A DNA stretch of 14,114 bases from Chitinophagaceae bacterium UBA7600 (lineage in GTDB: Bacteria; Bacteroidota; Bacteroidia; Chitinophagales; Chitinophagaceae): the NCBI GenBank assembly GCA_002478885.1, contig DLKC01000067.1:1-14114 (forward strand). Direction: 5' to 3'. Below are positions 5,926 through 13,117 of the stretch, in pieces. How positions within the stretch are numbered: the stretch's first letter is position 1; every line of letters starts with the position of its first letter. Both the position numbers and the translations under genes were made by a program. Below the pieces are notes generated by a model. That model worked only from the letters and a program-made list of their open reading frames with translations, did no database searches and was not told where the DNA came from.

Positions 5926-6813
5926 ATGGCAGTCATTTTAGTTACAGGAAGCAGCACCGGTATTGGCTATGCTGCAGCAGAAACATTGGGCAGGAACGGG
6001 CATACTGTGTATGCCAGCATGCGCAATCCCCAACGTTCACCGGCATTGCAGCAATTGGCCGACAAAGAAAACCTTCCCATTACCGTTATTACAATGGATG
6101 TTACAGACGAGCAATCTGTAAATAATGCTATTGGTCTTATTCTTTCCAAAGAACCGCAGATCGACGTGCTGGTGAACAATGCCGGAATTGCCTCATGGGG
6201 CGCGGTGGAAGAACTGCCACTCGACCTGTACCGTGCTGATATGGAAACGAACTATTTCGGGGCGATCCGTTGTATTCAAAAGGTACTGCCGGCGATGCGC
6301 AGGCGTAATGCCGGCTGCATCATCAATGTTACTTCTATTGCAGGGAGAATCTACAGTAATTTTCAAAGCACCTATTGCTCTTCGAAAGCGGCACTTGAAG
6401 CATTCAGTGAGAGCCTTGCGCAGGAGGTCGTTCCTTTTGGGATAAGGATTGCCCTCGTAGAACCAGAGGTTATTGAGACGCCCATCTTCTCAAAGTCAAA
6501 CGAGGTGCCTGCAGGTACCAGCTATCCAAACCAGCGCCGGCTTTTCGCATTCTTTGCAGCCGCACTTGAATACCATAACCCGCCATCGCTTGTGGGAGAA
6601 GTGATCAACAATATTGTTAATGGAAACAGCCAGTCGTTCCGCAATCCTGCCGGCCCCATGGCAGCAGGGCTGTTAGGCTGGCGGGCATCACTGCCCGACG
6701 AAGAATGGATTGCTTCCAATGCTGTTGATGAGGAAACCTGGATCGCCGGCATGGCACAAATGGGCCTTGATGTAAGAAAACACATGATGCCGGACAGGCC
6801 GATGCGTTTCTGA
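5926..6813 (+). CDS. Short-chain dehydrogenase/reductase (classical SDR)
   Basis: This is an NAD(P)-dependent oxidoreductase of the classical SDR family, 295 residues, cytoplasmic. Seen directly: the cofactor-binding TGSSTGIG (residues 7-14), the structural NNAG (84-87), and the full catalytic set Asn109, Ser137, Tyr150 and Lys154 (Y-x-x-x-K in YCSSK). An Asp58-Val pair (DVTD) after the third strand is typical of adenine-ring contact. Arg33 after the second strand (ASMRNP) suggests a preference for NADP. The ATG at 5926 begins the Rossmann fold directly (MAVILVTGSS), so the start is secure. The C-terminal part (about 190-295) is longer than in the shortest SDRs and determines substrate, which cannot be told from sequence. 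It appears monocistronic, with fic convergent downstream. Confidence 0.93.
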   Translation: MAVILVTGSSTGIGYAAAETLGRNGHTVYASMRNPQRSPALQQLADKENLPITVITMDVTDEQSVNNAIGLILSKEPQIDVLVNNAGIASWGAVEELPLDLYRADMETNYFGAIRCIQKVLPAMRRRNAGCIINVTSIAGRIYSNFQSTYCSSKAALEAFSESLAQEVVPFGIRIALVEPEVIETPIFSKSNEVPAGTSYPNQRRLFAFFAAALEYHNPPSLVGEVINNIVNGNSQSFRNPAGPMAAGLLGWRASLPDEEWIASNAVDEETWIAGMAQMGLDVRKHMMPDRPMRF

Positions 6814-6881: not shown

Positions 6882-6909
6882 GGGTGATAATCACCCAGGT
6901 GCTTTCACC
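6882..6909. terminator. Two tandem small hairpins at the convergent 3' ends of SDR and fic genes
   Basis: GGGTGA-TAA-TCACCC (6882-6896) is followed directly by GGTG-CTTT-CACC (6898-6909). The second includes the fic stop codon (6907-6905 on the - strand). They lie between two genes that point at each other and would form on either transcript, as expected for a bidirectional stop. No T-run follows on either strand, so termination is inferred from position and symmetry only. Confidence 0.3.
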
Positions 6910-8011
6910 CTGCAAGTATATAGCCTGTACTTCTTCCACCGGCTGCTCCTTTCTCCAATACATTTTTCTCCAGCAGGTCCTGGATGTCCCGTAAGGCAGT
7001 ATCCTGGGAGCAGTTCGCGATTTTCGCCCATTTGGATGTGATGAGTTTGCCGTCGAAGCCATCGAGCAGTTTATTCAGCATCAAAACCTGCCGCGCATTG
7101 AAAATTGTTTGCTGGTGCTGTTTCCAGAATGCGGCTTTTTGCATTACCTGGGCCAGTATTTCCCCTGATGCCAGCAAGGCGCGGCGGAGGCAATTAAGAA
7201 ACCATTCCATCCACGGAGTTATATCCATTCCACCCTGCTGTGTTTTTTCCAGGATGGTATAATAAGCGTTGCGTTCTTTCCTGACCTGGGCGCTCATACT
7301 GTAGAAGCGCTGGGCGGAGCCGTCGGCACGGCTTAATTGCAGGTCGGCGATCGCCCGCGCTATGCGGCCATTGCCATCGTCAAACGGGTGTATGGTAATA
7401 AACCACAGGTGTGCCAGGGCAGCTTTTAAAACGGGGGATGTTTGAAGGTCTGTATTGAACCACTTAAGGAACTGTTGCATTTCATCGGGCAGCAATGCAG
7501 CAGCAGGGGCTTCATAATGGACTTTCTCTTTTCCCATGGCGCCTGAAACTACCTGCATGGGATCGTGGGGAAGATTGTTACGCCATGCGCCGGTAACGAT
7601 GGGCTGCATCCCGCTTCTACCTGTTGGGAACAATGACGCGTGCCAGGCAAAAAGCCGCCACTCCGTAAGCGGTTCCTCAAAATGCTGGGTTGCGTCCAGC
7701 ATCATTTCCACAACGCCTTCCACATCACGGCCTGGTTTTATGGAGGACTCTGTGTCGAGGCCCAATCTTTTTGCCACTGAAGACCTTACCTGCCCTGCAT
7801 CGAGCAGTTCGCCTTCTATTTCGCCGGACTTCAATATATCGGTTGTGATTGTTTGCAGCGTCGCTTCTGCGCGAAGGCCGAAGCCAATGAGTTCCATTTT
7901 TCCCAGCAGGTGACCCTGCAGGTGACCCACCTCATTTAATAACTGTTGCAGTTTATCCTCCTGCCAGGTAAATGACGGCCAATTTTTTAGCTGATGGATA
8001 TACCTGCCCAT
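6905..8011 (-). CDS. Fic-domain AMP-transferase with N-terminal inhibitory helix (class II) and C-terminal winged helix
   Basis: Fic enzymes transfer AMP (sometimes other nucleotide groups) to hydroxyl side chains of target proteins. The 368-residue product carries the complete active-site motif HPFDDGNGRIAR (residues 208-219; His208 is the general base, with the Asp/Gly/Asn/Arg anion and metal site). Upstream it has S-G-E-I-E-G (62-67), which fits the inhibitory helix motif [S/T]xxxE[G/N]; Glu66 would push away ATP gamma-phosphate. This N-terminal placement defines class II self-inhibited Fic proteins. Residues 1 to about 85 resemble DUF4172, and about 305-368 look like a winged helix-turn-helix (KWAKIANCSQDTALRDIQDL). 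The architecture matches solved Fic proteins of Bacteroides and Shewanella. No separate antitoxin gene adjoins it. The start codon (8011-8009) overlaps the first unit of the operator-like repeat array upstream. Confidence 0.95.
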   Translation of the reverse strand: MGRYIHQLKNWPSFTWQEDKLQQLLNEVGHLQGHLLGKMELIGFGLRAEATLQTITTDILKSGEIEGELLDAGQVRSSVAKRLGLDTESSIKPGRDVEGVVEMMLDATQHFEEPLTEWRLFAWHASLFPTGRSGMQPIVTGAWRNNLPHDPMQVVSGAMGKEKVHYEAPAAALLPDEMQQFLKWFNTDLQTSPVLKAALAHLWFITIHPFDDGNGRIARAIADLQLSRADGSAQRFYSMSAQVRKERNAYYTILEKTQQGGMDITPWMEWFLNCLRRALLASGEILAQVMQKAAFWKQHQQTIFNARQVLMLNKLLDGFDGKLITSKWAKIANCSQDTALRDIQDLLEKNVLEKGAAGGRSTGYILAG

Positions 8012-8108
8012 TCTCCGCTGTTTATGCGGTGAATATAGGCATTATTCTCCGCATATTGAGATAATCTACGCATGTTGTGCGGAGATTAGGACAGTTATTC
8101 GCCGCATA
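8009..8108. promoter_or_regulatory. Operator-like array: six 13-bp elements in two phased triplets upstream of fic
   Basis: Six copies of an element with consensus TATTCTCCGCATA lie directly before and over the fic start: 8009-8021 (+, degenerate, core ATTCTCCGC), 8023-8035 (-), 8043-8055 (+), 8062-8074 (+), 8076-8088 (-), 8096-8108 (+). Orientation runs +,-,+ twice. Offsets within each triplet are 14 and 20 bp, and each unit of the second triplet is exactly 53 bp from its counterpart, about five helical turns. Units 2 and 3 form a near-perfect inverted repeat (13-bp arms, one mismatch, 7-bp spacer). Units match each other while the spacers differ, which argues for protein binding rather than a recent duplication. 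The likely target is fic expression; the binder could be the Fic winged-helix domain itself (inference). Confidence 0.72.
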
Positions 8109-8322: not shown

Positions 8323-9594
8323 TTACTGCGCCAAAACCTGTTTGATCGTTTCGATTTTTGCCTTTTGGTCTTCGTAAGCACTTATAGCAAAACTGTCGTC
8401 CATCGCGTCGGCTTCGGCTTTGGCTTTTTGCTCATACGCGGTTTGCTTATCGGTGTCCCCTTTATAATTATACGCCTCTGCAATCGTAAATAATACCCAT
8501 ACCCTGTCGCCCTGTTCTGCAAAGCCTGCACCGGCTTCAATAGCAAGCGAAACTTTTAAGACCTTGTTTCGCGTGGAGTCGGCATCGGTGCGGGTATCTT
8601 CCCACTCATCGTCAGCATTCGCTTTTTGAATGGACGCTTTCCTGTACAGCATGTAGGCCGCATTGATGCCATTGTAGTAATCCTGTTTTAAGCTAAAGCC
8701 CCTGTCGTAATACCAGATCGCTTCTTCGAGGTATTTAGGGTTTGCATTGAGTTCAAAGATCCGTTTGTTGATAGCACCGCTCAGGCCGAGAATCTCCACG
8801 TCCTGTGTATCTTTTGGCGCCAGCGGCGTAAGAATAGCCATGGCCTGCGCCAGCATAAACATGTCTTTGTCATCGGATTTGTAAGTACACAAGGCACGCC
8901 TGCATTCGATAAATGGCAGGTCGCTTTTTGGCGCGAGGTTCTTGTCCACATAACTTTTAGCGGTATCAAACAAAGAAATGGCCAGCTTCCAGTCCTTCTT
9001 TCTTTTGGCTGCTTCGGCACGTGCCATCAACGCCGAAAAAGGTTCCATAACGGGAGCCGGGTCCTTGTCGCCAAACATCGGGTCTTTATTGGGATCGAGT
9101 ATATCATAAACAGGACTGTCGCTGGGAAGGAGGTTGTTCTCCAGGTTTTCGACAATATTCTTTAATACCTTTTTGAACCGCTCTGCTTCCTCGTCGGTAA
9201 TGCCGTCGGGGCTGTGCTGGTAACCCTGGATCACGTGGTGACTCACATCAAAAGGCGGTGTCGGTGAAAGGTGTGCCCAGTCGGAGATGATGATGGTATG
9301 GCATTTCTTCAGCGCATGCCTTACGCCCAGTTCCCAAATGGCATTGGCATTGAGGCAGGTGATGTCGCAGATGACGATGTCAGACTCATTGATGGCTTTG
9401 ATCATTACCTGGTCGATGCTGCCGGACACATTCATATCGCAGGCACGCTGGCATTTGATGCCCAGTTCATCGAATACCGGTTTTATGAGTTTGCTGTAGG
9501 TCTGGTTAAGGTCGAGCATGCGCGCAACACCCGTTGCATAACTGGGTTTGGTGCCAAAGCCAATGACCACGAAACAGAAATTATACGTTTTCAT
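8323..9594 (-). CDS. TIR/nucleoside-deoxyribosyltransferase-like domain fused to TPR-like TRAFs-binding domain (ASK-related)
   Basis: The 423-residue product has two parts. Residues 1 to about 125 form an alpha/beta domain like nucleoside 2-deoxyribosyltransferases and TIR-like NAD hydrolases. It has a first strand FCFVVIGFGTK, then SDIVICDITCLNAN (Asp77) and IWELGVRHAL with Glu88 at the position of the catalytic glutamate. After a charged linker, residues from about 190 onward are helical, with TPR-like pairs (RAEAAKRKKDWKLAISLFDTA, YLEEAIWYYDRGFSL), matching the TRAFs-binding region of animal ASK kinases. It probably acts as a cytosolic stress or conflict protein whose N-terminal domain cleaves a nucleotide or NAD-like substrate (inference). 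The ATG at 9594 is preferred because the domain starts right after it; an in-frame ATG at 9621 adds nine residues but sits in a hairpin loop. It lies downstream of the AI-2E gene on the same strand. Confidence 0.85.
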   Translation of the reverse strand: MKTYNFCFVVIGFGTKPSYATGVARMLDLNQTYSKLIKPVFDELGIKCQRACDMNVSGSIDQVMIKAINESDIVICDITCLNANAIWELGVRHALKKCHTIIISDWAHLSPTPPFDVSHHVIQGYQHSPDGITDEEAERFKKVLKNIVENLENNLLPSDSPVYDILDPNKDPMFGDKDPAPVMEPFSALMARAEAAKRKKDWKLAISLFDTAKSYVDKNLAPKSDLPFIECRRALCTYKSDDKDMFMLAQAMAILTPLAPKDTQDVEILGLSGAINKRIFELNANPKYLEEAIWYYDRGFSLKQDYYNGINAAYMLYRKASIQKANADDEWEDTRTDADSTRNKVLKVSLAIEAGAGFAEQGDRVWVLFTIAEAYNYKGDTDKQTAYEQKAKAEADAMDDSFAISAYEDQKAKIETIKQVLAQ

Positions 9595-9598
9595 AAGC

Positions 9599-9633
9599 GA
9601 AGTAGTTTTTGTGTTGGTCATTAAAACTACTTC
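9599..9633. repeat. Perfect 11-bp inverted repeat with flanking T-run at the start of the TRAFs-binding gene
   Basis: GAAGTAGTTTT (9599-9609) and AAAACTACTTC (9623-9633) are perfect inverted arms with a 13-base loop, followed on the + strand by seven Ts (9634-9640). On the + strand this has the layout of an intrinsic terminator, yet no + strand gene lies upstream of it. On the - strand it forms a hairpin in the leader of the TRAFs-binding gene, ending four bases before the ATG at 9594, with the alternative ATG (9621) in its loop. Either an antisense terminator or a translation-control hairpin would fit. Confidence 0.6.
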
Positions 9634-11716: not shown

Positions 11717-13117
11717 ATGCCTGACCTAGTAGCTGAACCGATTGGACTAATTGAAGACATAAATTCAAGACCTGAAGATGTAGACAAATTAATTATTTCA
11801 AATATCGAGAAAGCTACTGCGGAAAATTCAAATATTTGGACAAGTCCCGATTACAACAAAAGAGAATATATTCATAGTTTCTTTCAGTATCCTGCTCGCA
11901 TGATTCCAGCTGTCCAAAGAAAATTAATTGAAATAATAATTGAAGCGAAACCAGACATTGAAAATATGATCGATCCGTTTATGGGTTCGGCAACTACACT
12001 CGTCGCATGCATGGAATCTGGATTAAATTGTTACGGACAAGATATTAATCCTTTGGCGATTTTAATAGGGAAGGCCAGAACTGGACCGTATTATACCGAA
12101 GCATTGAAAGAAAAAAGTAGCGAACTGTTGAAAATAATTGAGAACGATAGGTCTGAAAATATTGAAATTTCGTTTGACAATTTGAGCAAATGGTTCAAAC
12201 GAAATGTAATAATTGAATTATCAAAAATTGTTAGAGCTATAAAAAAGCAGACTTCTCCGTTTGCAAGAAGATTTTTTTGGGTTGTTTTGGCAGAAACCGT
12301 TCGAGTAACGTCAAATGACCGAACGTCGACCTACAAATTACATGTAAGAAAAAAAGAGGAAATAGCAAAAAGGCAATTTTCCGCTATTGATGTTTTTGCT
12401 CTTCATTTAGATAAATGCATTGAAGATTTTGAGTTGCACGCAAACTTATTGAAAGAAAAGGCGATGTTAACCAAACGCTCATATAAATCGAAATTAGATA
12501 TTATACTTTGGGATTCAAAGCAAAGCATTTATTCTCCAAATAATACAGAGTTTTATGACTTATTAGTTTCATCACCTCCATATGGCGACAATAAAACAAC
12601 AGTCACTTATGGACAAAATTCGTATTTACCGTTGCAATGGATTGAGATGAGTGACATAGATCCACAAGCTACAAAAGGTATATTAAAAACCACCACGGAA
12701 ATTGATGCCAAGTCACTCGGTGGAGTTCTAAAAAATATTAATGAAACAAAACTGCATGATTTATTTTTTAAAAGCCCCACGTTAAAAAAAACGTACGATA
12801 ATGTGGTAAGGAATTCCTCCGCAAAGCATGTAAAAAAGGTCGCTGCTTTTTTTTTAGATCTTGACAAAACCATTGATAATATTTTTTCTGTAATGAAGCC
12901 CAATAGTTACCAAATTTGGACGATTGGAAATAGGACGGTAGCAAAAGTTGAAATTCCAAATGACGAAATTATTATCGAGCTTATTACCTCCAAGGGAGGT
13001 AAATTAATAACTCAAGTTGAAAGAGAAATAATAAATAAGAGGATGGCAAAAAAGAACAAGGATACGTCTCTTATGAATACTGAAGATATTTTAATTTTTC
13101 GAAAAATTGAAGAATAG
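11717..13117 (+). CDS. DNA methyltransferase (amino-group, N4-cytosine/N6-adenine type)
   Basis: The 466-residue product is a site-specific DNA methyltransferase. The AdoMet-binding motif I is MIDPFMGSATTL (Asp86-Leu95), preceded by SFFQYPARMIP, a conserved lead-in of this family, and followed by YGQDINPLA (the acidic ribose contact). The catalytic motif IV is SSPPYGD (Ser286-Pro-Pro-Tyr289), most often seen in N4-cytosine enzymes. Motif I precedes motif IV by about 200 residues, a gap filled by a helical segment with SNDRTSTYKLHVRKK that may hold target-recognition functions. The C-terminal part has IWTIGNRTV. The gene is clearly A/T-richer than everything to its left, suggesting horizontal transfer. 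It overlaps the downstream GHKL ATPase gene by 11 bp, so they form an operon. Methylation target and any restriction partner are not identifiable here. Confidence 0.93.
   Translation: MPDLVAEPIGLIEDINSRPEDVDKLIISNIEKATAENSNIWTSPDYNKREYIHSFFQYPARMIPAVQRKLIEIIIEAKPDIENMIDPFMGSATTLVACMESGLNCYGQDINPLAILIGKARTGPYYTEALKEKSSELLKIIENDRSENIEISFDNLSKWFKRNVIIELSKIVRAIKKQTSPFARRFFWVVLAETVRVTSNDRTSTYKLHVRKKEEIAKRQFSAIDVFALHLDKCIEDFELHANLLKEKAMLTKRSYKSKLDIILWDSKQSIYSPNNTEFYDLLVSSPPYGDNKTTVTYGQNSYLPLQWIEMSDIDPQATKGILKTTTEIDAKSLGGVLKNINETKLHDLFFKSPTLKKTYDNVVRNSSAKHVKKVAAFFLDLDKTIDNIFSVMKPNSYQIWTIGNRTVAKVEIPNDEIIIELITSKGGKLITQVEREIINKRMAKKNKDTSLMNTEDILIFRKIEE

What the first reader, a model, noticed from the sequence alone, without database searches (positions are those of the whole stretch)
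8009..8108. Phased two-triplet array of a 13-bp element over the start of a Fic gene
Six units matching TATTCTCCGCATA occur in 100 bp, in order +,-,+,+,-,+. Unit starts (8009, 8023, 8043, 8062, 8076, 8096) give internal offsets 14 and 20 in both triplets and a constant 53-bp shift, about five helical turns, so both triplets face the same side of the DNA. The units are conserved whereas the 7-8 bp spacers diverge (8036-8042 against 8089-8095), as expected for selection on protein contacts. The first unit overlaps the fic start codon, so binding would block initiation. This looks like a cooperative autoregulatory operator, plausibly bound by the Fic C-terminal winged helix, which could link AMP-transferase state to its own expression.
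Basis: partly seen in the sequence, partly recalled or inferred. Interest (0 to 1): 0.75.

Follow-up and report, generated by a model that had tools for sequence, protein, structure and literature searches.

The report
Fic enzyme reads its own promoter
Six copies of a short DNA sign lie over the start of a bacterial gene for an AMP-transferring (Fic) enzyme, and in 136 scorable copies of this gene the letters of the sign change in step with one amino acid in the enzyme's own DNA-reading helix, so the enzyme likely binds its own promoter and would switch its own gene off.

Summary
The array is real and not chance: 5 near-matches in 110 bp against at most 3 in 1000 simulations. It sits over the start of a DUF4172-Fic-winged-helix gene. 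Its core is a dyad, TGCGGNGAATA-N7-TATTCNCCGCA. 84 of 90 family Fic genes read carry at least 3 units; control regions never do. A paralogous Fic clade keeps the dyad geometry with another word, TGAGCCGAATA. The letters follow the Fic protein's own recognition helix: residue 336 is the only alignment column that fully predicts unit base 5 (70 of 70 loci). A rule written beforehand was right at 62 of 62 hold-out loci it spelled out (66 of 66 with its plain extension); its base-6 part failed for alanine. A predicted -7 promoter element overlaps the last dyad. Most likely this is an autorepression operator read by the Fic winged helix; neither binding nor repression was measured. Autorepression by a Fic-HTH protein is known (CccR, PMC9755527); the multi-dyad operator and the residue-to-base code did not appear in six library searches. 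Unexplained: correctly spaced sites without fic, in fic-less genomes and viral contigs.

The parts
6905..8011 (-). fic gene: 368-aa Fic protein (DUF4172 + Fic + C-terminal winged helix)
   Evidence: PF13776 E 3.7e-31, PF02661 E 1e-16; PDB 8CIL E 4.3e-91
8096..8106 (-). unit 1 (fic sense, +), TGCGGCGAATA, 0 mismatches
8078..8088 (+). unit 2 (fic antisense, -), pairs with unit 1 as the distal dyad (18-bp offset)
8062..8072 (-). unit 3 (fic sense, +), 1 mismatch
8043..8053 (-). unit 4 (fic sense, +), TGCGGAGAATA, 0 mismatches
8025..8035 (+). unit 5 (fic antisense, -), pairs with unit 4 as the proximal dyad (18-bp offset)
8009..8019 (-). unit 6 (fic sense, +), 2 mismatches of 11, overlaps the fic start codon 8009-8011
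8030..8037 (-). predicted -7 promoter element TATATTCA running into the proximal dyad
   Evidence: TATATT is at this place in 37 of 76 clade-A loci; spacer tail TA in 46 of 55 proximal against 6 of 62 distal dyads
6914..7111 (-). codons 301-366, winged-helix domain (predicted DNA reader)
   Evidence: alignment; model, helices 325-332 and 336-348, block pLDDT 82-91 over 321-350
7004..7006 (-). codon of Q336, first residue of the modelled recognition helix, whose identity predicts unit base 5 (and in part base 6)
7355..7390 (-). FIC motif HPFDDGNGRIAR (codons 208-219)
   Evidence: sequence; all but position 217 invariant in the 40 aligned sequences
7811..7828 (-). class II inhibitory motif SGEIEG (codons 62-67)
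   Evidence: sequence; E64, I65, E66, G67 invariant in the 40 aligned sequences

Best explanation
The six units over the start of fic are most likely an operator with which this Fic enzyme represses its own gene: its C-terminal winged helix is predicted to bind the +/- dyads, which overlap a likely -7 promoter element and the start codon. Shown by the sequences: the array, its conserved dyad geometry, its place at fic, and the covariation between a recognition-helix residue and a base of the unit. Inferred: one Fic dimer per dyad (18-bp offset kept in both clades although the word differs), cooperative filling of the dyads, and repression by blocking RNA polymerase and initiation. Further inferred, from what is proposed for CbFic2: operator-bound dimeric Fic may be held in a deAMPylating or silent state, so that the operator sets enzyme level and perhaps activity.
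For: (1) Conservation: 84 of 90 family loci have >=3 units of one of three words (59 of 62 loci whose best word is GCGG or GCGT and 28 of 28 GAGCC loci have >=2); the same scan at -420..-254 and inside the gene gave >=3 units in 0 of 87 and 0 of 90. (2) Two Fic clades 31-39% identical to each other keep the dyad but change the word, TGCGGNGAATA against TGAGCCGAATA. (3) Column scans: residue 336 is the only column that perfectly separates 5 GCGT from 51 GCGG loci, ranks first for base 6 (F 10.4, R2 0.56; next F 9.8), and has MI/H = 1.0 for base 5 over 70 loci (next 0.545). (4) On a tree built without the winged helix, base 5 and the residue-336 class each change 7 times; the 5 independent pairs on well-supported branches go the same way. 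(6) Helix residue 337 goes with bases 3-4 (D: CG or CA in 134 of 147; A: AG in 40 of 42). (7) The model puts 336 at the start of the recognition helix. (8) Promoter overlap: TAnnTTTG starts exactly 6 bp before the last dyad in 24 of 27 clade-B loci; spacer tail TA in 46 of 55 proximal against 6 of 62 distal clade-A dyads. (9) In family genomes with such a fic, the exact clade-A dyads found (29 in 25 genomes) all lie at fic. (10) Precedent: CccR binds palindromes in its own promoter by its HTH and represses itself (PMC9755527).
Against: No binding or expression was measured. The base-6 rule failed for A336 (predicted T/C, found A in 11 of 14 units), and base 6 against Q/P at 336 got no support from independent pairs on the tree (of 4 pairs about 1 agreed and 3 did not differ). 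For base 5 there are only 5 supported pairs (two-sided p 0.0625), and the H/K/R class was chosen after seeing the data. Base 5 could be called in only 70 of 134 loci; ties include L020, L023 and L056 (Q336) and L141 (H336). A minority of Fic loci have no dyad by the mechanical test: L019, L028, L067, L098, L142, L145, L146, L149, L162, L163, L164, L168, L170, L173, L182. The window's -7 element is TATATTCA, not the full TAnnTTTG. Exact dyads and triplets also occur without a fic in the genome.
Confidence: 0.85

Rival explanations
1. Another host regulator, not Fic, binds the array and controls fic.
For: Direct repeats and dyads upstream of a gene are usually read by some regulator, and no binding was measured. 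Solitary sites occur in genomes with no such Fic.
Against: The letters of the unit change with residues of the Fic's own recognition helix, in two draws and on a hold-out. In family genomes with such a fic the exact clade-A dyad was found only at fic.
Confidence: 0.06
2. The inverted units act as RNA hairpins (attenuator or translational switch) in the fic leader.
For: +/- units form perfect or near-perfect inverted repeats with 7-base loops, and the last unit overlaps the start codon. Base 7 agrees somewhat more within dyads than between them (38 of 52 against 58 of 104).
Against: The variable base 6 does not co-vary within a dyad: equal in 20 of 52 same-dyad pairs against 44 of 104 pairs from different dyads; base 9 likewise 35 of 52 against 68 of 104. 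The distal dyad lies upstream of the predicted start of transcription. A hairpin does not explain the protein-residue code.
Confidence: 0.03
3. Binding is real, but its main purpose is to set the enzyme's activity (operator DNA as an antitoxin or allosteric switch) rather than to repress transcription.
For: CbFic2, the nearest solved relative, is proposed to become a deAMPylating dimer on DNA binding (PMC10628234). Sites without a fic, in fic-less genomes and viral contigs, would make sense as activity-setting DNA.
Against: The dyads sit on the predicted promoter and often on the start codon, as expected for repression. CccR's regulatory and toxic activities were reported as independent (PMC9755527).
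Confidence: 0.2

Closest known systems
CccR of Yersinia pseudotuberculosis (PMC9755527; passages and section 10 part 1 read)
   Same: Class II Fic with C-terminal HTH; represses its own gene by binding inverted repeats near -35/-10; the dimer is needed.
   Different: Its operator is one pair of 10-bp repeats 26 bp apart (AGATAATCAT-N26-ATGATAATCT). Here it is two or more 11-bp dyads with 7-bp spacers plus extra units, another word, and a place reaching the start codon. CccR is a secreted effector; nothing here shows secretion.
CbFic2 of Coxiella burnetii, PDB 8CIL (PMC10628234; abstract, passages and part 1 of the discussion read)
   Same: Same three-part make-up DUF4172-Fic-wHTH; nearest solved relative by sequence (E 4.3e-91) and by fold (E 4.2e-19); DNA binding by the HTH.
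   Different: Random DNA was used there and a specific site was left open; it is an effector that modifies histones. Its gene was not fetched here.
SoFic (Shewanella oneidensis SO_4266, PDB 3EQX/3ZCN) and the SoFic anti-phage system in PADLOC
   Same: PADLOC SoFic model matches over residues 15-365, E 1.4e-39; a Fic protein of the same general fold (weak whole-model match).
   Different: By sequence only residues 164-279 match 3EQX (E 3.5e-8). No anti-phage activity was tested. PMC12249575 (passages searched) on Sofic toxicity has no occurrence of HTH, DNA-binding or transcription.

Membership tests
[quoted passage not shown]
   HPFDDGNGRIAR at 208-219
CccR-like self-repressing Fic-HTH protein | class II inhibitory motif (S/T)xxxE(G/N) N-terminal to the FIC motif | tested here: met
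   SGEIEG at 62-67
CccR-like self-repressing Fic-HTH protein | C-terminal HTH domain | tested here: met
   Alignment and model helices 325-332 and 336-348; whole model aligns to 8CIL
CccR-like self-repressing Fic-HTH protein | one pair of 10-bp inverted repeats 26 bp apart in the promoter | tested here: not met
   Dyads with 7-bp spacers, repeated
CccR-like self-repressing Fic-HTH protein | measured binding and autorepression | not testable with these tools
   Needs gel shift and reporter
CbFic2-type DUF4172 Fic | DUF4172 + Fic + wHTH make-up over the full length | tested here: met
   PF13776 and PF02661; 8CIL over residues 1-365
CbFic2-type DUF4172 Fic | DNA-induced dimerisation and switch to deAMPylation | not testable with these tools
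   Biochemistry
SoFic anti-phage system | PADLOC SoFic model match | tested here: met
   E 1.4e-39
SoFic anti-phage system | close full-length kinship to SoFic itself | tested here: inconclusive
   Only residues 164-279 match 3EQX, E 3.5e-8; weak fold match, best E 2.3e-4 to 3ZEC and 4.9e-4 to 3EQX
SoFic anti-phage system | protection against phage | not testable with these tools
   Plaque assay needed
Two-gene toxin-antitoxin module (Phd-Doc, FicA-FicT) | small antitoxin gene next to fic | tested here: not met
   No same-strand ORF >=60 aa in the 311 bp between fic and the next gene upstream; the downstream neighbour (5926-6813) is convergent. ORFs under 60 aa were not examined

The most novel reading that the evidence does not exclude
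Fic operators are a widespread code of their own, and some are kept without a fic: solitary triplets in fic-less bacteria and correctly spaced dyads in phage genomes act as DNA decoys that catch an incoming or resident Fic enzyme and hold it in its DNA-bound, deAMPylating state, a DNA antidote to a Fic defence or toxin.
Probability: 0.12. Interest if true: 0.88.

Novelty: new variant of a known kind. Interest (0 to 1): 0.64.

Why it matters
Yet the DNA site of the nearest studied member was left open (PMC10628234). This gives a predicted site, its geometry and a residue-to-base rule that passed a hold-out for base 5, so that binding, self-repression and DNA control of AMPylation become directly testable with short probes. 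It also offers a way to forecast the site of an unstudied Fic from its recognition helix, and it raises the question why the same sites occur where no Fic is encoded.

Tried and rejected
RNA hairpin reading: rejected on base 6 and base 9, which do not pair within dyads more than between them (20 of 52 against 44 of 104; 35 of 52 against 68 of 104); base 7 does somewhat (38 of 52 against 58 of 104).

Foreign regulator with a regulon: in genomes with such a fic no second clade-A dyad was found; for clade B 1 of 37, beside a fic remnant (L125).

Orphan dyads (17 GCGG in 15 genomes, 21 GAGCC in 18 genomes without such a fic): first taken for other target genes. Reading the neighbouring ORFs by eye (no family search was run on them), I saw one protein twice (L108, L133) and otherwise no recurrent neighbour. 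Some lie beside fic remnants: L100, L105, L115, L119, L125, L128, L135; L112 and L118 by eye. Of 19 orphan genomes searched with a clade-A winged-helix model, 15 had no match (11 of 15 with the clade-A word, 4 of 4 with the clade-B word). In genome contigs 34 of 117 dyads are not at a fic; 3 of the 34 have a fic trace within 1.3 kb, 29 have the third unit, 22 hold exactly three units. A relic of a whole array does not fit well; left open.

Viral sites: 45 viral stretches hold the strict dyad; controls gave 0 (scrambled arms), 0 (10-bp spacer), 5 over spacers 8-14, four of them at 8, and 0 for a second scramble over seven spacers. Against a function: 33 of 90 fic-less contexts lie inside ORFs of 100 aa or more. 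In the one gene family tested, a phage exonuclease, the full dyad is in 5 of 52 distinct sequences among the best 80 relatives, with no excess of conserved third codon positions (0.54 in units, 0.61 outside), so it looks like a coding coincidence there. Of three viral stretches searched in the annotated phage collection, one matched two Bordetella phage records over 16% of its length and two matched none.

Strict five-turn phasing: pitch varies. Structure model: 40 sequences, mean pLDDT 64.4, under 50 over 43-102, 129-141, 211-215 and 221-237; used only for the winged helix. Base-6 rule for A336: failed.

Rows dropped: nine partial matches of the 99; six partial or weak matches besides repeats of loci held; the genomes already seen (two fetched loci, L198 and L215, removed) and three partial matches (G916, G878 twice).

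Full report
WHAT IS THERE. The region 8009-8108 lies directly upstream of and over the start codon of a gene on the minus strand (6905-8011) for a 368-aa protein with DUF4172 (PF13776, E 3.7e-31) and Fic (PF02661, E 1e-16) domains and a C-terminal winged helix. Read along fic, six 11-bp units TGCGGNGAWTA lie at -95(+), -77(-), -61(+), -42(+), -24(-) and -8(+), i.e. two triplets + N7 - N5 +. In 1000 Markov simulations of the window the largest cluster in 110 bp was 3, once; observed 5. In the 5.47-Mb genome the exact dyad occurs only here, twice.

CONSERVATION. A search of 294 genomes of the same family found 85 with a Fic match at E <= 1e-20. I read the upstream regions of 90 of the 99 matches, the window's included; nine partial matches were dropped. 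84 of 90 have at least 3 units; control regions (-420..-254, and inside the gene) have at least 3 in 0 of 87 and 0 of 90. L067, L097 and L098 have none of the three words searched. The closer relatives carry TGCGGN units, 5 of them TGCGT. The clade that is 31-39% identical carries TGAGCC units in the same +/- dyad (28 of 28 loci assigned to that word have two or more). The +/- offset is 18 bp in 97 of 109 and 49 of 57 adjacent pairs; the dyad pitch is 50-55 or 33-34 in the first clade and 43-45 (once 98) in the second. So the dyad, not the 53-bp pitch, is the fixed element.

WHO READS IT. Alignment of the winged helices showed that the letters follow the helix S-x-[D/A]-T-A-x-R-D. Scanning every column of the protein: residue 336 alone separates the 5 GCGT from 51 GCGG loci perfectly (H in 5 of 5, 0 of 51; next best phi 0.76). 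For base 6 among 56 TGCGG loci, residue 336 again ranks first (F 10.4, R2 0.56; the next F is 9.8, so the margin is small). With 47 further loci from a phylum-wide draw, base 5 could be called in 70 of 134 loci; the rest are the TGAG clade, loci without a dyad, and ties such as L020, L023, L056 and L141. In those 70 residue 336 explains base 5 fully (MI/H 1.0, next 0.545): T with H (5), A with K (6), G with the others (59). On a tree of residues 1-300 both traits change 7 times; the 5 independent pairs on supported branches agree (p 0.0625, too few for 0.05). The H/K/R class was defined after seeing these data. The same kind of test for base 6 against Q/P gave no support (of 4 pairs about 1 agreed, 3 did not differ), so base 6 is the weaker part of the code.

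HOLD-OUT. I wrote the rule down and then drew 395 genomes of the class; 87 new loci were read. Base 5: right in 66 of 66 decidable clade-A loci (59 G, 7 A). There were 5 ties, 6 loci without units and 5 without a readable helix; clade B 5 of 5 GAGCC. No H336 locus turned up, so that part of the rule was not tested. Base 6 (+ arms): Q to A 24 of 25, P to A 19 of 22, T to T or C 21 of 23, S to T 3 of 3; the forecast for A336 failed (A in 11 of 14). The rule that N341 gives TTCGG rests on two training loci (L165, L177). Residue 337 goes with bases 3-4: D with CG or CA in 134 of 147, A with AG in 40 of 42, the remainder mostly ties. 83 lie within -200..+20 of a fic start (72 full length), by record title in Bacteroidota, Proteobacteria, Acidobacteria, Planctomycetes and others; 80 of the 117 titles were listed. 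Of 73 with a readable helix none has H, K or R at 336, as the rule requires. The AlphaFold model (mean pLDDT 64, but 82-91 over residues 321-350) puts 336 as the first residue of the recognition helix 336-348; its best fold match is CbFic2, 8CIL.

HOW IT LIKELY WORKS. The Bacteroidota -7 element TAnnTTTG (recalled consensus) starts exactly 6 bp before the last dyad in 24 of 27 clade-B loci with a dyad at -28. In clade A, TATATT runs into the last dyad's minus arm in 37 of 76 loci, and the TA that completes it is in 46 of 55 proximal but 6 of 62 distal spacers. A unit overlaps the start codon in 20 of 62 and 19 of 28 loci. A protein on these dyads would cover the promoter and start codon, hence repression is inferred. 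The 18-bp dyad offset kept in two clades suggests one dimer per dyad (inferred). In fic-bearing family genomes the exact dyads lie at fic: clade A 29 of 29 (25 of the 62 such genomes have an exact one); clade B 36 of 37, the other beside a fic remnant. So fic is seemingly its own only target. CbFic2 is proposed to become a deAMPylating dimer on DNA (PMC10628234), so operator binding may also set activity (inferred).

AGAINST KNOWN SYSTEMS. CccR of Yersinia pseudotuberculosis represses itself through two 10-bp repeats 26 bp apart (PMC9755527, passages and section 10 part 1 read). The principle is thus known; architecture, word and code differ. For CbFic2 random DNA was used and a specific site was left open. 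Six searches of the paper library showed in their listings no Fic operator array or residue-to-base code for this family; subscription papers are mostly not held.

WHAT REMAINS STRANGE. Exact dyads also occur where no such fic is encoded: 17 in 15 family genomes (clade-A word) and 21 in 18 (clade-B word). Of 19 such genomes searched with a clade-A winged-helix model, 15 had no match. In genome contigs 34 of 117 are such orphans; 29 of 34 keep the third unit and 22 of 34 have exactly three units, against 3-8 at fic genes. In IMG/VR, 45 stretches hold the strict dyad while four control scans gave 0, 0, 5 and 0. Decoys are one reading. But 33 of 90 fic-less contexts lie in ORFs of 100 aa or more, and in the one gene family tested the dyad showed no sign of selection.

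Noticed in passing
window 8323-9621 (-): Gene upstream of fic encodes a protein with a TPR-S domain (PF20308, E 9.8e-19) and a weak N-terminal TIR-like / nucleoside deoxyribosyltransferase-like match; looks like a possible defence effector.
   Followed up: no
window 11717-13117 (+): Type II DNA methyltransferase, PADLOC MTase_II E 1.8e-110; whether a restriction gene lies nearby was not examined.
   Followed up: no
L068-L095 and relatives: A paralogous DUF4172-Fic clade with the word TGAGCCGAATA at mostly 44-bp pitch, its last arm often ending on the A of the fic ATG; subvariants TGAGGC (R336: L096, L183, L185, L186) and TGAGCTATA (L179; by eye L097).
   Followed up: partly
L099-L135 and genome-contig loci L286-L394 (orphan dyads): Solitary Fic-operator sites in places without a fic; in the family set those listed lie outside the kept ORFs. 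In L105, L301 and L385 the site lies directly beside a remnant of the fic winged helix.
   Followed up: partly
L395-L548 (IMG/VR): Fic-operator dyads in viral contigs, far above spacing and scramble controls, mostly without fic.
   Followed up: partly
plasmid collection: Relatives of this Fic sit in 433 of 72,556 plasmid records, the best listed ones in Methylocystis, Hymenobacter and other genera, so the gene probably moves between phyla; operators there were not examined.
   Followed up: no
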